Positions 1,339-62,105 of a stretch of DNA of 64,000 nt are shown piece by piece; the first letter of the stretch is position 1; every line of letters begins with the position of its first letter. Below the pieces are notes generated by a model. That model was not told where the DNA came from and did not search any database. It saw only the letters and a program-made list of their open reading frames with translations. Position numbers and translations under genes: made by a program. The stretch lies in contig NZ_CP035108.1 of the NCBI RefSeq assembly GCF_004087915.1, positions 1 through 64,000 on the forward strand. Reading direction: 5' to 3'. This DNA comes from Geovibrio thiophilus. GTDB lineage: Bacteria; Chrysiogenota; Deferribacteres; Deferribacterales; Geovibrionaceae.

Positions 1339-1869
1339 TGTCAAATTCTCCATCCATGGGAATTTGACATACACGCTCGCGCCGTGGTAAACACGGCTTC
1401 GCTTCGCACGGCGCAGTTCCGTCCGCGGAACTGTTTGCGTCATTGCGAACCCTGAAAGGGTGAAGCAATCTCTCACCTGATAACATCAAACAGTACATCC
1501 ATGGGAATTTGACATACACGCTCGCGCCGTGGTAAACACGGCTTCGCTCCGCACGGCGCAGTTCCGTCCGCGGAACTGTTTGCGTCATTGCGAACCCTGA
1601 AAGGGTGAAGCAATCTCTCACCTGATAACATCAAACAGTACATCCATGGGAATTTGACATACACGCTCGCGCCGTGGTAAACACGGCTTCGCTCCGCACG
1701 GCGCAGTTCCGTCCGCGGAACTGTTTGCGTCATTGCGAACCCTGAAAGGGTGAAGCAATCTCTCACCTGATAACATCAAACAGTACATCCATGGGAATTT
1801 GACATACACGCTCGCGCCGTGGTAAACACGGCTTCGCTCCGCACGGCGCAGTTCCGTCCGCGGAACTGT
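1339..1869 (-). repeat. Array A: 145-bp tandem repeat of the three-hairpin element
   Basis: About 3.6 nearly identical units of 145 bp; the repeated ATGGGAATTTGACA begins at 1356, 1501, 1646 and 1791. Read on the minus strand, each unit holds hairpin H1 (stem CAGTTCC/GGAACTG, loop GCGGAC), linker CGCCGTGCGGAGCGAAG, hairpin H2 (GCCGTG/CACGGC) and linker GCGAGCGTG. Only the dnaA-proximal copy has a complete H3 (TGTCAAATTC/GAATTTGACA, 1339-1370). Three units also carry a small CATTGCGAA...GAAGCAATC palindrome. The array fills the gap between the convergent dnaA and prepilin stop codons. Open frames crossing it are by-products of the repeat and are not called as genes. Confidence 0.93.
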
Positions 1870-10577: not shown

Positions 10578-11046
10578 CCGTCCGACCCCGCAGTAAAAAC
10601 AATAATAAAACAGCGATATGACATACTGCTAAAACAGCCGTTTGAAAAGAACAAATGCACAAATCATACCCAAAGCGTCTATTAATTCTCTCTTAAATCC
10701 GCACGTGCTTTAAGCAGTGTTTACCAAAGGTCTTACCCTTTAAACATCTTGCCGTTCATTAACATATACTATAAACACACCCCTAAGGCAACGATTGAAT
10801 ACGCTGTTTTGAAAATATGGATGACTGACGGAAGCGAATCAGGACGTCAGCATTTCAGGCTGGATTTAATATCCGCAGGAAACAGCAGTCGGTTTTATAA
10901 ACAAATTGGTATGGAATATCGAAAAATTTGAGTATATAATTCTCCTAATTATTTATCTGACGCAATTGCGCTCTAATAGGTAAATTTTATTAAGAATTAT
11001 AAATTTGCTGCAAATTTCTGAAATTCCGCTCTATAAAAAGGTTGCG
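10578..11046. other. AT-rich divergent intergenic region
   Basis: 469 bp between the GntR regulator (minus) and the sensor kinase (plus). Visible items are an isolated TATAAT at 10935-10940 on the plus strand without a convincing -35, and the perfect palindrome CGCAATTGCG at 10961-10970, just upstream of the kinase, as a possible operator. A short open frame at 10749-10931 has no family character or ribosome-binding site and is not called. Confidence 0.4.
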
Positions 11047-12897
11047 ATGAATTGTTCTGCTAAAACCGTAACGGGCATCTGCGCCGCGCTTGTCATTCTG
11101 TATGCCGCAAACATATTCTGTGTCCATGCGGTGCTTTCCGGCTATGCCGGAAAAAGGCTTGCTGCTGAGACAGCCTCCGCCGCAGACATGGCAGCGGACA
11201 GAATCTCTCTTACCCTGAAAGACATACGCTCTGAATCCCTGTTTATAATTGAGAGCATTGCAGGGCAGAGCGAGCAGTCACGCGCTGCGGTTCTTTCATC
11301 CTTTATACAGACAAAGCCTGAAATAACCGAAATTGTGGCGGCGGATTCCGAAGGTTTTTCATGGTTCACCGCGGGACGCGCGGAAACACCCCCCATAGGC
11401 GCCGATTATTCCGCTGAGAAATCGATCTCCGCTCCGCTTGAAACAAAAAGCACACACACCGGACAAATCAGAACGGACGCCTCGGACGGTTCGCCCTATA
11501 TCGAAATATCCGCTCCGCTGATAAACCCCGAAACAGATAACACAGACGGAGCCGTGAGGATCAGAATTTCACTGGGCATGCTTAAGGACGCGGCGGCGGC
11601 AGCGGTTCCCGAAGGGATGAAGACTGCGGTTCTCATAGGGAAAGACGGAGAAATGATAGCGGGGGACATGAGTCCTTCCGAGAAAAACATGCTCACCGCA
11701 TCCGCCCGCCTGAGCGGTGGAGAGACCCACGCCTTTTCTCCCGAAGAATACATAATTTCTTACAGTAAATTCAACTTTGACGGTAATGAGCTCACTGCCG
11801 CCGCTTATCTGCCCGGCGGAAAAGTGTCCGCCTTAATATCGCCAAGCCTTAAAAGTTACGCCGCAGCGTCTCTGGCTGTATTTCTGCTTGCCGTGCCCTT
11901 TGCTGTCTTCATAGTGCGCAGATACAGATCTCCCTATGAAAAATGCGGGGAACGGATGCTGGAAACGGAAAAAGTGCTTGAGCCCGCATTTACAGAAGCA
12001 CTCAAAGGAAAAAGCGGAACAGAGTACACGGAATGCTTTCTGGACGCCTGTGAGGCAACCGTCAATTCTTTGAGAAGGGTCTCTGAGGAATCGGGCAGGT
12101 GCACCGCAGAGCTTGTGGAAAAGCGTACCGAGCACCTGAAAAGCGAGATAAACGAGCTTCAGCGCAAGCTGAAGGAGGAATACACCAAGAATACCAAAAA
12201 AGACCAGATGATGATCCGCCAGAGCCGCCTTGCCGCAATGGGAGAGATGATCTCAAACATTGCTCACCAGTGGCGCCAGCCACTGAACGCCCTCGCTCTT
12301 ACAATTCAGGACATAGAGGATTCGTACCGCCACAATGAAATCAATGATGATTACATAAGGGACACCGTGGAAAAATCCATGGAGCTTATTCTGCATATGT
12401 CCGTCACCATTGACGATTTCCGCAATTTTTATAAAACCAATAAAGACATAATGGAGTTCAGTCTGAAACGCGCGATAGACGAAGCTATGAAAATTATCAG
12501 CGCAAGCCTGAAAAACTCCAGCATTGATATAGAAATCGACTGCAAGCATGATGTCACGGCACACGGATACCCCAATGAGTTCTCTCAGGTTATCCTGAAT
12601 ATTCTCAGCAACTCCAAGGACGCTCTCATAGATAACAGACCCGCCGGCAGGCTGATAAAAATCTCCATAGAAAAAACTCCGGAAGGCAAGGGACGCATAA
12701 TCATAACCGATAACGGCGGCGGCATCCCCGCCAATGTAATAGACAGCGTGTTCGACCCCTACTTCACTACGAAGGAGCAGGGCAGAGGCACGGGCATCGG
12801 TCTCTACATGTCCAAAACCATCATCGAAAACAATATGGGCGGCAAGATCGATATAGCGAATATCGGTGACGGTACAAAAGTCACCGTCGAACTGTAG
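11047..12897 (+). CDS. Membrane sensor histidine kinase with periplasmic sensor domain
   Basis: 616 aa from the ATG at 11047, chosen over an upstream TTG at 11005 because AAAAGG lies 5 bases before it. Topology: a membrane helix (about 8-30), an extracytoplasmic dCache-like sensing region (about 35-260), a second helix (about 275-292), a coiled coil (about 365-395), a HisKA dimerisation domain with phospho-acceptor His in IAHQWRQPLNALAL, and a HATPase domain with N-box NILSNSKDAL, G1 DNGGGIP and G2 GTGIGLYMSK. The AHQWRQPL type is frequent in Campylobacterota and Deferribacterota. No response regulator is adjacent, so it is an orphan kinase. Its last 15 codons and stop are repeated downstream in every unit of array B. 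Confidence 0.9.
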   Translation: MNCSAKTVTGICAALVILYAANIFCVHAVLSGYAGKRLAAETASAADMAADRISLTLKDIRSESLFIIESIAGQSEQSRAAVLSSFIQTKPEITEIVAADSEGFSWFTAGRAETPPIGADYSAEKSISAPLETKSTHTGQIRTDASDGSPYIEISAPLINPETDNTDGAVRIRISLGMLKDAAAAAVPEGMKTAVLIGKDGEMIAGDMSPSEKNMLTASARLSGGETHAFSPEEYIISYSKFNFDGNELTAAAYLPGGKVSALISPSLKSYAAASLAVFLLAVPFAVFIVRRYRSPYEKCGERMLETEKVLEPAFTEALKGKSGTEYTECFLDACEATVNSLRRVSEESGRCTAELVEKRTEHLKSEINELQRKLKEEYTKNTKKDQMMIRQSRLAAMGEMISNIAHQWRQPLNALALTIQDIEDSYRHNEINDDYIRDTVEKSMELILHMSVTIDDFRNFYKTNKDIMEFSLKRAIDEAMKIISASLKNSSIDIEIDCKHDVTAHGYPNEFSQVILNILSNSKDALIDNRPAGRLIKISIEKTPEGKGRIIITDNGGGIPANVIDSVFDPYFTTKEQGRGTGIGLYMSKTIIENNMGGKIDIANIGDGTKVTVEL

Positions 12898-13594
12898 CCA
12901 TCACAGTTCCACGGATGGAACTGCGCCGTGCGAAGCGAAGCCGCATTCAATGCGGCGCGAGCGTGCAGATAAATCCGACAGGATGTACGGATTTACCTTA
13001 TCAGTCAGATATAGCGAATATCGGTGACGGTACAAAAGTCACCGTCGAGCTGTAGCCATCACAGTTCCACGGATGGAACTGCGCCGTGCGAAGCGAAGCC
13101 GCATTCAATGCGGCGCGAGCGTGCAGATAAATCCGACAGGATGTACGGATTTATCTTATCAGTCAGATATAGCGAATATCGGTGACGGTACAAAAGTCAC
13201 CGTCGAGCTGTAGCCATCACAGTTCCACGGATGGAACTGCGCCGTGCGAAGCGAAGCCGCATTCAATGCGGCGCGAGCGTGCAGATAAATCCGACAGGAT
13301 GTACGGATTTATCTTATCAGTCAGATATAGCGAATATCGGTGACGGCACAAAAGTCACCGTCGAGCTGTAGCCATCACAGTTCCACGGATGGAACTGCGC
13401 CGTGCGAAGCGAAGCCGCATTCAATGCGGCGCGAGCGTGCAGATAAATCCGACAGGATGTACGGATTTATCTTATCAGTCAGATATAGCGAATATCGGTG
13501 ACGGTACAAAAGTCACCGTCGAACTGTAGCCATCACAGTTCCACGGACGGAACTGCGCCGTGCGAAGCGAAGCCGCATTCAATGCGGCGCGAGC
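12850..13594 (+). repeat. Array B: 158-bp tandem repeat including the 3' end of the kinase gene
   Basis: About 4.7 units with an exact 158-bp period; the repeated GATATAGCGAATATC begins at 12850, 13008, 13166, 13324 and 13482. The first copy is the genuine kinase 3' end (15 codons plus TAG). Each unit then has hairpin H1 (CAGTTCC/GGAACTG, loop ACGGAT), linker CGCCGTGCGAAGCGAA, hairpin H2 (GCCGCATT/AATGCGGC), linker GCGAGCGTG and hairpin H3 (AAATCCG/CGGATTT, loop ACAGGATGTA). The copied codons have no start codon, so they are a passive relic. Copies 2-4 share GAGCTG where the first and last have GAACTG. The last unit stops after H2 at 13594. Confidence 0.95.
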
Positions 13595-13612
13595 TCCATT
13601 CATCATAACCGC

Positions 13613-13646
13613 ATGTCACTCTGAACGGAGTGAAGAGTCTCAAACC
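13613..13646. repeat. Small dispersed palindromic repeat (CTCTGAACGGAGTGAAGAG type)
   Basis: An imperfect palindrome, GTCACTCTGAACGGAGTGAAGAGTCT, in which ACTCT pairs with AGAGT. It resembles the CATTGCGAA...GAAGCAATC repeat inside array A and element E, a type I recognise as common in many bacterial intergenic regions. Position 13595-13730 otherwise holds only the putative dnaX promoter. Confidence 0.5.
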
Positions 13647-13690
13647 TCAGAAGCTCCGTTAACAGCGCCTCCCGACCCGCTCCCTAAACT

Positions 13691-13719
13691 TTGCATTGAC
13701 TATACAGCCCCGCTAATCT
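13691..13719 (+). promoter_or_regulatory. Possible sigma-70-type promoter for dnaX
   Basis: TTGCAT (13691-13696) and TAATCT (13714-13719) are separated by 17 bp. The predicted transcription start lies only a few bases before the dnaX ATG at 13731, so the mRNA would be almost leaderless. This is weak evidence on its own. Confidence 0.35.
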
Positions 13720-13730
13720 AAAAATTATGT

Positions 13731-15380
13731 ATGTCTTATCTTGCTTTAGCCCGAAAACTCAGACCCCAGAATTTTGATGAGATAGTGGCACAGGAATTTG
13801 TGGTCACTACCTTGAAAAACGCCATTGAGCTGGACAGACTCGTCCATGCCTATCTCTTCACCGGTCCCCGGGGCGTGGGCAAAACCAGCACGGCGAGGAT
13901 CTTCGCAAAGGCGCTCAACTGCCTTGACCCTCAGGGGGTAAACCCCTGCAATAAATGCGAAAATTGCCGTGAGATAACAGACGGAACCTCTATGGACGTG
14001 ATAGAGATAGATGGCGCATCCAACAGGGGCATAGACGAAATACGAGACCTGAGAGAAGCTGTCCGCTTCTTCCCCGTTAAATGCAGGAGAAAGGTCTACA
14101 TCATAGATGAGGTTCACATGCTTACGGAGCAGGCGTTCAATGCACTGCTCAAGACCCTTGAGGAGCCTCCTTCACATGTGGCGTTTATTCTCGCCACCAC
14201 TGACGCTCAGAGGATACCCGCCACAATTATTTCCCGCTGCCAGAAATACGATTTCCGCAAGATTCCCTTTGAGCAGATGCACGATTCCCTCACCGATGTG
14301 CTCTGCAAAGAGCAGATAGAATATGAGGACGACGCCCTTAGCCTGATCATCCGCAACTCGGACGGATGTATGCGTGATTCGCTCTCCATGCTTGACCAGA
14401 TAATCGCCTTCACCGGCGGAAAGGTGGACGAGACAAACACCGCTTTTCTGCTGGGCTTTTCCGACACTAATCTTATCGAAGATCTTCTGAAAATTATCCT
14501 TGAGGAAAATACCGCTGAAATACCCGCGATAGTTGAGGAGATATGCGCAAAAGGGATAAGCCTCCGCTTCGCCGCGGAATCCCTCATTGAACATACCCGC
14601 AACCTCCTCTTTTTCATAGCCACAGGCGGCAGGAATACCAAGGAGCTCACCAGCCACGAAGAACAGCTTTACCGCAGCCTGTCCGCCAAAGTCACCGAGC
14701 ACAGGCTTTTCGCCCTGTTTCAGGTTTTCCAGAAGCTCCTTAACGACCTTAAATTTTTCAGCTTTGAGCAGTATGTGTTTGAGTTTGCCGCATACAAGGC
14801 TGCGTCTCTTTCATCCGTAATACCTGTTTCAGGAACTGGAGCTGTTCAGACACAAACTCCGGCGAGGCAGAGAACAGAACCGCCGAAACAGCAGCCTGCA
14901 CCGAAGGAACCTCACCAGCCGCATCAGCAGAGCGAAACCCCGTCCGGTGACGACCCTTGGAAAAGCATGGTGCGCCACGCAGCCAAGGAAAACGGCAAAG
15001 TGGCGGGCTATCTTGAGAACGTATTTCTCTCCGGTGTGGCAGGGGATGAGCTCCGAATAGGCACCACGGAGGACAAGAAGTTCTACTTCCAGATGCTGAA
15101 CCGACCGGAGCATCTCAAATATCTGTCCGAAACCGCAGGCAGGTTCTTCCCCGGCGTGACTAAGGTAAAACTGGCTCTGGAAAACGAGCCGAAAAAAAAA
15201 ACTCTGACTGAGACAAGAAAGGAAGCGGAAACCTATCACGACCGCAAGACGAGAAAGGAAGCGGAAGACAACGAACTGGTAAAAAAACTTGAAAAGGAAT
15301 TTAACGCCAAAGTCATTGGCATAGAAGTAATAAAATTTTCTGCTGACGAAGAAACCGAGCAGGAAGCCGACTCTGATTAA
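13731..15380 (+). CDS. dnaX: DNA polymerase III tau/gamma subunit DnaX
   Basis: 549 aa clamp-loader ATPase. It contains Walker A GPRGVGKTS (about 45-53), a four-cysteine zinc module (CLDPQGVNPCNKCENC), Walker B with DEVHML, sensor 1 (ATTDAQ) and the SRC motif (SRCQKYDF). After the AAA+ core and collar (to about 360) a Pro/Gln-rich linker (PARQRTEPPKQQPAPKEP) leads to a charged C-terminal tail with EAETYHDRKTRKEAED. It is involved in loading DnaN and tethering polymerase III cores. It sits alone between array B and the ClC gene. Confidence 0.96.
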   Translation: MSYLALARKLRPQNFDEIVAQEFVVTTLKNAIELDRLVHAYLFTGPRGVGKTSTARIFAKALNCLDPQGVNPCNKCENCREITDGTSMDVIEIDGASNRGIDEIRDLREAVRFFPVKCRRKVYIIDEVHMLTEQAFNALLKTLEEPPSHVAFILATTDAQRIPATIISRCQKYDFRKIPFEQMHDSLTDVLCKEQIEYEDDALSLIIRNSDGCMRDSLSMLDQIIAFTGGKVDETNTAFLLGFSDTNLIEDLLKIILEENTAEIPAIVEEICAKGISLRFAAESLIEHTRNLLFFIATGGRNTKELTSHEEQLYRSLSAKVTEHRLFALFQVFQKLLNDLKFFSFEQYVFEFAAYKAASLSSVIPVSGTGAVQTQTPARQRTEPPKQQPAPKEPHQPHQQSETPSGDDPWKSMVRHAAKENGKVAGYLENVFLSGVAGDELRIGTTEDKKFYFQMLNRPEHLKYLSETAGRFFPGVTKVKLALENEPKKKTLTETRKEAETYHDRKTRKEAEDNELVKKLEKEFNAKVIGIEVIKFSADEETEQEADSD

Positions 15381-48856: not shown

Positions 48857-49427
48857 TGCGGAGCGAAGACGAACGAAGTTCGGCGCGAGCGTGTACGCTG
48901 AGCGGACAGGATGTAACGCCGATATTGTCCACAAGCCCATGGACGGGCTTGCGCCGTGCGGAGCGGAGACGAACGAAGTTCGACGCGAGCGTGTACGCTG
49001 AGCGGACAGGATGTAACGCCGATATTGTCCACAAGCCCATGGACGGGCTTGCGCCGTGCGGAGCGAAGACGAACGAAGTTCGACGCGAGCGTGTACGCTG
49101 AGCGGGCAGGATGTAACGCCGATATTGTCCACAAGCCCATGGACGGGCTTGCGCCGTGCGGAGCGAAGACGAACGAAGTTCGGCGCGAGCGTGTACGCTG
49201 AGCGGACAGGATGTAACGCCGATATTGTCCACAAGCCCATGGACGGGCTTGCGCCGTGCGGAGCGAAGACGAACGAAGTTCGGCGCGAGCGTGTACGCTG
49301 AGCGGACAGGATGTAACGCCGATATTGTCCACAAGCCCATGGACGGGCTTGCGCCGTGCGGAGCGAAGACGAACGAAGTTCGGCGCGAGCGTGTACGCTG
49401 AGCGGACAGGATGTACCGCTCAGCGTT
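48857..49427 (+). repeat. Array C: 100-bp tandem repeat of the three-hairpin element
   Basis: About 5.7 units at exactly 100 bp; GCGCCGTGCG begins at 48951, 49051, 49151, 49251 and 49351. Each unit has hairpin H1 (CAAGCCC/GGGCTTG, loop ATGGAC), linker CGCCGTGCGGAGCGAAG, hairpin H2 (CGAAC/GTTCG) and linker GCGCGAGCGTG. Complete H3 (ACGCTGAGCGG/CCGCTCAGCGT, loop ACAGGATGTA) exists only in the last unit (from about 49395); in the others its right arm has been replaced by the next unit. It ends 6 bp from the leuD stop. Long open frames across it in all phases are repeat artefacts. Confidence 0.94.
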
Positions 49428-58796: not shown

Positions 58797-59190
58797 TGTT
58801 GCGTCAGGCGGTTGATCCGCCTGCGAGCGTGTCAGCAAACTGACAGGACGTACACGTTTGCTGCTGTTATAACTCATATTATTCCACGGAAGGAATAACG
58901 CCGTGCGGAGCGAAGACGAACGAAGTTCGGCGCGAGCGTGTCAGCAAACAGGCAGGACGTACACGTTTGCTGCTGTTATAACTCATATTATTCCACGGAA
59001 GGAATAACGCCGTGCGGAGCGAAGACGAACGAAGTTCGGCGCGAGCGTGTCAGCAAACTGACAGAGCGTACACGTTTGCTGCTGTTATAACTCATATTAT
59101 TCCACGGAAGGAATAACGCCGTGCGGAGCGAAGACGAACGAAGTTCGGCGCGAGCGTGTCAGCAAACTGACAGGACGTACAGTTTGCTGC
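58797..59190 (+). repeat. Array D: 109-bp tandem repeat of the three-hairpin element
   Basis: About 3.5 units; H1 begins near 58878, 58987 and 59096 (period 109). H1 is TTATTCC/GGAATAA with loop ACGGAA; linker CGCCGTGCGGAGCGAAG; H2 is CGAAC/GTTCG in the repeats, but the leading part-unit has AGGCGG/CCGCCT; H3 is CAGCAAACTG/CAGTTTGCTG with loop ACAGGACGTA in the last copy (about 59159-59188). It starts 3 bp after metG, in the sense orientation. Confidence 0.93.
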
Positions 59191-61061: not shown

Positions 61062-61102
61062 GAGAACCTTTCTTTAACGAAAAAGAACGGTTCTCTTTTT
61101 TT
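61062..61102 (+). terminator. Terminator after the stress gene, built on an R2 hairpin
   Basis: GAGAACC...GGTTCTC followed by a run of seven T. Its arms AACCTTTCTTTAACG and AAAAAGAACGGTT match R2 hairpin b, so the dispersed repeat here works as the gene's terminator. Confidence 0.75.
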
Positions 61103-61104
61103 AT

Positions 61105-61249
61105 GATCTGAAATTCACCCTCCATGGGAATTTCAGATACACGCTCGCGCCGTGGTAAACACGGCTTCGCTTCACACGGCGCAGTCCCATCCATGGGACT
61201 GTACAGTTTACGTCATTGCGAACTCCGCAGGGGTGAAGCAATCTCTCTG
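61105..61249 (-). repeat. Element E: single copy of the three-hairpin element
   Basis: On the minus strand: H1 CAGTCCC/GGGACTG, loop ATGGAT (61182-61201); linker CGCCGTGTGAAGCGAAG; H2 GCCGTG/CACGGC; linker GCGAGCGTGT; H3 (61106-61138), stem ATCTGAAATTC/GAATTTCAGAT with an 11-base loop. A CATTGCGAAC...GAAGCAATC palindrome adjoins (61213-61249). It is a lone complete unit, and the clearest template of the family, placed downstream of the minus-strand gene at 61270-61857. Confidence 0.9.
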
Positions 61250-61964: not shown

Positions 61965-61978
61965 TGCAGACTTTTTTA

Positions 61979-62085
61979 CTTATCAAGAGTGGTGGAGGGA
62001 CAGGCCCGTCGAAACCACAGCAACCGCCCTTTGAGGAAAGGTGCTAATTCCTGCCCTGCGTGCCGTGAAGACAGGGGAGATAAGA
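61979..62085 (+). ncRNA. SAM-I (S-box) riboswitch
   Basis: The S-box core is present: P1 arms CTTATC/GATAAG (61979 and 62079-62084), the GGTGGAGGGAC and GGCCCG...GAAACC core, CAGCAACC, and AAGGTGCTAATTCC followed by the closing helix. High SAM should favour the terminator at 62106-62139 and shut off metY-metX. Confidence 0.93.
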
Positions 62086-62105
62086 ACCGTTAAGACGACT
62101 CTAAC

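What the first reader, a model, noticed from the sequence alone, without database searches (positions are those of the whole stretch)
12850..13594. Array B amplifies the last 15 codons and stop of the kinase gene
Each 158-bp unit begins with GATATAGCGAATATC..., the exact in-frame 3' end of the kinase (DIANIGDGTKVTVEL, stop), followed by the hairpin element. The amplification breakpoint therefore fell inside the coding sequence. The first and last units share GAACTG, the inner three share GAGCTG, indicating later homogenisation. The kinase end is also a small hairpin (GGTGAC/GTCACC). Loss or gain of whole units leaves the protein unchanged, so the locus can vary in copy number freely.
Basis: seen in the sequence. 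Interest (0 to 1): 0.6.

Follow-up and report, generated by a model that had tools for sequence, protein, structure and literature searches.

The report
Hairpin repeat that duplicates gene ends
A small three-hairpin repeat, present in about 260 copies in this bacterium and mobile within its genus, sits just after a gene's stop codon and has been copied in tandem together with the last 48 bases of that gene; the same thing happened independently at many other genes.

Summary
Array B (12850-13594) has four full 158-bp units and a 113-bp partial one. Each starts with the last 15 codons and stop of a histidine-kinase gene, followed by a hairpin element. It is not a one-off. The element is a dispersed, about 105-nt, three-hairpin repeat with strong covariation (260 strict copies; absent from Rfam), abundant only in this genus. 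At least ten further arrays in this genome, and several in two congeners, have likewise captured 9-48 nt of the neighbouring gene's 3' end; two captures take a gene's start codon instead. The kinase-dnaX junction is empty in three relatives, so array B is recent. One empty-site comparison shows insertion with an exact 30-bp direct duplication of a gene end; elsewhere a congener has a single unit where this genome has several. The captured segment starts at GA far more often than chance (12 of 25 against 2.1 expected). Best explanation: the element inserts at, or duplicates across, gene ends with variable direct duplications, and these then expand by unequal recombination. The enzyme is unknown: no Y1 transposase and no reverse transcriptase was found in this genome. 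Closest known kinds are YPAL-type small mobile repeats and MIRU-type tandem repeats.

The parts
11005..12897 (+). membrane-type sensor histidine kinase gene (dCache, HisKA, HATPase_c); its last 48 nt are the captured segment
12850..12897 (+). native gene end (15 codons + TAG), first copy of captured segment T; starts with GA
12902..13004 (+). three-hairpin element, copy 1 (hp1 12904-12923, core GCGCCGTGCGAAGCGAAG 12923-12940, hp2 12941-12955, CGCGAGCGTG, hp3 12967-12998 with loop GACAGGATGTAC)
   Evidence: covariance model match; alignment and fold
13008..13165 (+). unit 2: gene-end copy (GAGCTG) + element
13166..13323 (+). unit 3, identical to unit 2
13324..13481 (+). unit 4, one further change (GGC for GGT)
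13482..13594 (+). unit 5, partial: gene-end copy (GAACTG), hp1, core and hp2, then cut inside the element; hp3 absent
13690..13730 (+). upstream region of dnaX conserved in three relatives (TTTGCATTGACTATA...TAATCT), lying downstream of the array
13731..15380 (+). dnaX (DNA polymerase III gamma/tau)
1351..1869 (-). another array of the same element family, unit 145 bp, starting right after the stop of the neighbouring ORF
48857..49419 (+). another array, unit 100 bp, first copy 5'-truncated
58823..59190 (+). another array, unit 109 bp, first copy 5'-truncated
61101..61203 (-). single copy of the element

Best explanation
Array B is one locus of a genus-specific family of small non-coding mobile repeats (about 105 nt, three hairpins). 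In this lineage the element arrived a few bases after the stop codon of the kinase gene. Its 3' end (consensus ...AAG[A/T]CA) was joined to a GA site inside the gene, 54 nt upstream of the element's own 5' end, so the stretch between (the gene end, T) was directly duplicated. The resulting direct repeats then expanded by unequal recombination or slippage to [T-element]n, and the last unit lost its 3' part. Shown: the units, the empty site in three relatives, the family, the same architecture at many genes, an exact 30-bp duplication at one empty-site pair, and single-unit states in a congener. Inferred: that insertion with a variable target-site duplication and in-situ re-duplication are one process, that recombination drives copy number, and that an unidentified enzyme or the replication machinery makes the joint. 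The first T copy remains the functional gene end, so the array is probably near-neutral for the kinase, and dnaX keeps its upstream region below the array.
For: Empty kinase-dnaX junction in G001, G002 and G003: intergenic 79, 112 and 48 bp against 833 bp here. 260 strict copies in this genome against 0 for the reversed-pattern control. Covariation: 203 cells changed on both sides against 60 in shuffles, 0/500 shuffles as high. Gene ends are captured at other arrays after genes of independent families: UPF0102, FtsK, Tex, TonB, proC-like P5CR, isopropylmalate dehydrogenase-like, PfkB/cytidylyltransferase, release factor (RF-1/PCRF), DUF1385, CofH/MqnC-like. L059b: G002 is empty, and G000 has an exact 30-bp direct repeat on both sides of the element. 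L051+ in G002 is T-element-T' with a diverged duplicate of about 42 bp. L044, L054, L065 and L051-: G001 lacks the element or has a different array there, G002 has one unit, G000 several T-element units. L059a has 29-bp T in G000 but about 33-bp T in G002 with the same 5' junction, so the duplications look independent. T starts exactly with GA at 12 of 25 loci (expected 2.1), and GA lies within the first 3 positions at 19 of 25 (expected 6.0); no simulation of 200,000 reached either value. GAACTG is ancestral.
Against: No mobilising enzyme was identified: no Y1 transposase and no RVT_1 domain in this genome; G001 alone of the congeners has an RVT_1 protein. Several loci in G002 (L044, L054, L065) hold one unit with no second T, so a target-site duplication is not universal. 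Array B itself has no clean T after its last unit. G002 is a draft in about 50 contigs and tandem copies could be collapsed. The GA statistic was found on the same loci that suggested it.
Confidence: 0.58

Rival explanations
1. Replication template switching alone. The element was already in place; the nascent strand carrying the three hairpins folded out, its 3' end slipped back 10-57 nt upstream of the element with 1-3 bp of microhomology, and the gene end plus element were recopied. No transposition step with target-site duplication is needed.
For: G002 holds single units without a second gene-end copy at loci where G000 has tandem units. Junctions of duplications without trailing T show only 1-3 bp overlap (L049 1, L051- 1, L054 3, L107 2). 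The element folds strongly as single-stranded DNA (z = -4.8).
Against: L059b in G000 against the empty site in G002, and T-element-T' in G002 at L051+, show direct duplication on both sides of the element. The right joint falls repeatedly at the element's 3' tail and the left joint at GA, which is more specific than random slippage.
Confidence: 0.3
2. Unit number is an assembly artefact (a collapsed or expanded repeat).
For: Long reads could not be examined.
Against: Units carry private substitutions; arrays of the same kind exist in separately assembled G001 and G002; the genome is held as a single 2,997,552-bp contig.
Confidence: 0.03
3. The array is a selected functional module, for instance a terminator, mRNA stabiliser or insulator between the kinase and dnaX.
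For: The structure is conserved through paired changes; 21 of 67 loci sit within 15 nt of a co-directional stop codon.
Against: Three relatives lack the element here while keeping the kinase-dnaX order and the dnaX upstream region. Family members sit after unrelated genes. Stem changes are nearly always two-sided with few G-U intermediates, which fits block exchange or palindrome correction as well as RNA selection.
Confidence: 0.07

Closest known systems
YPAL/RU-2 and similar small non-autonomous bacterial repeats (reviewed in PMC2229807)
   Same: 100-170 bp, structured, internal inverted repeats, intergenic, no terminal TA, variable direct target duplication, empty and filled sites between related genomes
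   Different: YPAL duplications are reported as 3-26 bp; here 28-61 bp and overlapping gene ends, and most loci are tandem arrays with conserved loops on locus-specific stems. No sequence comparison with YPAL was made.
MIRU/VNTR of mycobacteria (40-100 bp units at 41 loci; PMC2734929)
   Same: dispersed units, tandem arrays between genes, copy number differing between genomes, intergenic spacer short in relatives that lack the array
   Different: In array B the unit contains the upstream gene's own end plus a dispersed hairpin element; no sequence relation was tested
REP/BIME elements with RAYT transposases (PMC2817692)
   Same: high-copy extragenic palindromes, often next to stop codons (the latter from general knowledge)
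   Different: No Y1 transposase domain in this genome, G001 or G002; the element has three hairpins and about 105 nt, against 20-40 bp for REPs (PMC3733652)
TPRT-type retroelement insertion (from general knowledge)
   Same: one specific end, variable target duplication, common 5'-truncated copies
   Different: No reverse transcriptase domain found in G000 or G002

Membership tests
YPAL-like small mobile repeats | insertion polymorphism between related genomes | tested here: met
   empty against filled sites at the kinase locus and at L059b, L044, L051+, L065
YPAL-like small mobile repeats | direct target duplications of variable size | tested here: met
   30 bp at L059b with empty site, about 42 bp at L051+ in G002, 28-61 bp at G001 loci L113, L114, L160, L171; not present at every locus
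YPAL-like small mobile repeats | sequence homology to YPAL | not tested
   no YPAL sequence was compared
classical MITE | terminal inverted repeats and TA duplication | tested here: not met
   5' end CAGTTCC... and 3' end ...AAGACAG are not inverted repeats; duplications are 28 bp or longer, not TA
REP/RAYT | Y1 transposase in the genome | tested here: not met
   PF01797: 0 matches in G000, G001, G002
retroelement (TPRT) | reverse transcriptase in the genome | tested here: not met
   PF00078: none in G000 or G002, one in G001; strongly divergent RTs are not excluded
MIRU/VNTR | dispersed tandem units between genes | tested here: met
MIRU/VNTR | copy number differing between strains of one species | tested here: inconclusive
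   differs between congeneric species; no conspecific strains held; G002 is a draft
known structured RNA (Rfam) | match to a curated covariance model | tested here: not met

The most novel reading that the evidence does not exclude
The element is moved by an undescribed end-specific process: its 3' tail is joined to a GA site and its 5' end to a second, variable site 28-61 bp away, so a gene end or start is duplicated on both sides and the gene survives. The same reaction repeated in place builds gene-end satellite arrays, without a recognisable Y1 transposase or reverse transcriptase.
Probability: 0.25. Interest if true: 0.75.

Novelty: new variant of a known kind. Interest (0 to 1): 0.55.

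Why it matters
Small bacterial repeats usually do not show how they were made. Here the captured gene ends are natural tags: they record the left joint, the duplication length and the order of events at dozens of genes, and two congeners supply empty, single-unit and multi-unit states of the same loci. That makes the origin of a dispersed tandem-repeat family testable, and shows a way in which gene ends, and occasionally start codons, are turned into satellite DNA without damage to the gene.

Tried and rejected
(1) Guide or target-copying idea for hp3: single-looking elements in distant Deferribacterales (L081, L083) seemed to have direct repeats beginning at the hp3 right arm; reading further upstream showed an earlier tandem unit there, and the remaining case (L082) is A/T-rich, so the idea is not supported. 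(2) RAYT/REP: no Y1 domain. (3) Reverse transcription: no RVT_1 in G000 or G002. (4) Known RNA family: none. (5) Wider distribution: the pattern in genome contigs gave the congener MAG and three single hits lying in apparent coding sequence, with none of the element's loop motifs in their loci; viral contigs gave none and plasmids none. (6) Literature searches for the loop motifs and for such arrays found nothing specific. (7) CRISPR-like reading (repeat = gene end, spacer = element) was set aside because the 'spacers' within an array are near-identical.

Full report
What is there. Window 12850-13594 holds a tandem array of period 158 bp, 4.7 units, 98% internal identity. Each unit begins with GATATAGCGAATATC..., the last 45 coding bases and TAG of a histidine-kinase gene (11005-12897; dCache_1, HisKA, HATPase_c), followed by about 110 bp of a hairpin element. 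Only four columns vary among the units. Both congeners read GAACTG at that place, so A is ancestral and the inner units derive from a mutated copy. Both variants within the gene-end copies (GAA/GAG, GGT/GGC) are synonymous. The fifth unit stops inside the element.

The element. Searching the unit against its own genome gave 116 matches, all but array B itself starting at unit position 50 or later: the element is dispersed and the gene end is private to this locus. A strict core pattern counts 260 copies (143 + 117), with none for the reversed control. Forty aligned copies share hp1 with loop CCAYGGAYGG, the core GCGCCGTGCGNAGCGAAG, hp2, GCGCGAGCGTG, hp3 with loop GACAGGATGTRC or CCATGGATGG, and a tail near AAGACAG. 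Stems differ from locus to locus and remain paired: 95% of cells form standard pairs, 203 cells are changed on both sides against 60 in shuffles, and no shuffle is as high. One-sided G-U states are rare in the three hairpins (4, 0 and 6 cells, against 41, 58 and 103 two-sided). That is unlike slow step-by-step RNA evolution and would fit block exchange between copies or palindrome correction; this point is inference. Rfam has no such family.

Distribution. A covariance model finds at least 66 scored copies in each of the three genomes of the genus, and only a few weak, diverged matches elsewhere in the order.

Gene-end capture is recurrent. Of the arrays examined in this genome, those at L031, L035, L044(+), L049, L051(+), L051(-), L054, L059 (two arrays) and L065 also contain 9-48 nt of the upstream gene's 3' end including its stop, with a marginal case of 5 nt at L091. 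The genes belong to unrelated, clearly real families. The same is seen in G001 (L107, L108, L109, L118) and G002 (L137, L187, L193). Two cases take a gene's beginning instead: L119 in G001 duplicates 44 bp covering the start of a fliM-like gene (its sequence reads MADILSQEEIDALL), and L080 in G007 duplicates about 26 bp with ribosome-binding site and ATG. So the event is not tied to this kinase.

Order of events. At the kinase-dnaX junction G001, G002 and G003 have no element; the spacer is 79, 112 and 48 bp against 833 bp here. At L059b G002 is empty, and G000 reads T-element-T-element-T with a 30-bp T whose right copy continues into the ancestral flank: a target-site duplication. At L051(+) G002 has T-element-T' with a diverged T' of about 42 bp. 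At L044, L065 and L051(-), G001 is empty, G002 has one unit without a second T, and G000 has two to four T-element units; at L054 G002 again has one unit and G000 three, while G001 carries a different array of the family at the same place. This indicates duplication in place. At L059a the element's 5' junction is the same in G000 and G002 but T starts at different points (29 against about 33 bp), pointing to independent duplications.

Site preference. Over 25 loci in three genomes the captured segment begins exactly with GA in 12 (expected 2.1) and has GA within three positions in 19 (expected 6.0); none of 200,000 simulations reached either value. The element's end at the joint is mostly AAG[A/T]CA. 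This end specificity argues for more than random slippage, but the test used the loci that suggested it.

Mechanism. I favour insertion (or re-insertion in place) of the element with a variable direct duplication, followed by unequal recombination among the repeats. The chief rival is hairpin-provoked template switching alone. Neither a Y1 transposase nor a reverse transcriptase is available in G000 or G002, so the agent is unknown. For the kinase the effect is probably small: the first gene end is intact, later copies lie downstream of the stop, and the conserved dnaX upstream region lies below the array.

Caveats. No long reads or conspecific strains were available; G002 is a draft; not every locus has a duplication on both sides; array B lacks a clean right-hand T; not all of the 260 copies were read.

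Noticed in passing
13611-13641; also inside array A (1351-1869) and many loci: A second dispersed repeat family (GTCATTGCGAAC...GAAGCAATC / GTCACTCTGAACGGAGTGAAGAGTCTC) often lies directly beside the hairpin element and is amplified with it.
   Followed up: no
13690-13730: TTTGCATTGACTATA...TAATCT upstream of dnaX is conserved in G001, G002 and G003 and looks like its promoter (TTGCAT-17-TAATCT).
   Followed up: partly
L041, L050, L051(+), L065: Within one array the last or first unit carries an hp3 of the other loop type, as if hp3 cassettes were exchanged between loci.
   Followed up: partly
L197, L201 (G002): Elements with about 45 extra nt in the core (GAGCAAAACCGCCG...GGCGGTTTCTGTACCAAGCTTGCTG): a longer form of the element.
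   Followed up: no
array C 48857-49419, array D 58823-59190, L046, L056, L064 and others: Many arrays begin with a 5'-truncated first copy and end with a complete 3' end; 3'-truncated last copies (as in array B) seem rarer.
   Followed up: partly
L119 (G001); L080 (G007): Duplications covering a gene start: 44 bp at the start of a fliM-like gene, and about 26 bp with ribosome-binding site and ATG.
   Followed up: partly
L205 (G001:C3:114810-115451): G001 carries an RVT_1 protein (501-aa open frame) absent from G000 and G002.
   Followed up: no
61977-62086: SAM riboswitch.
   Followed up: no
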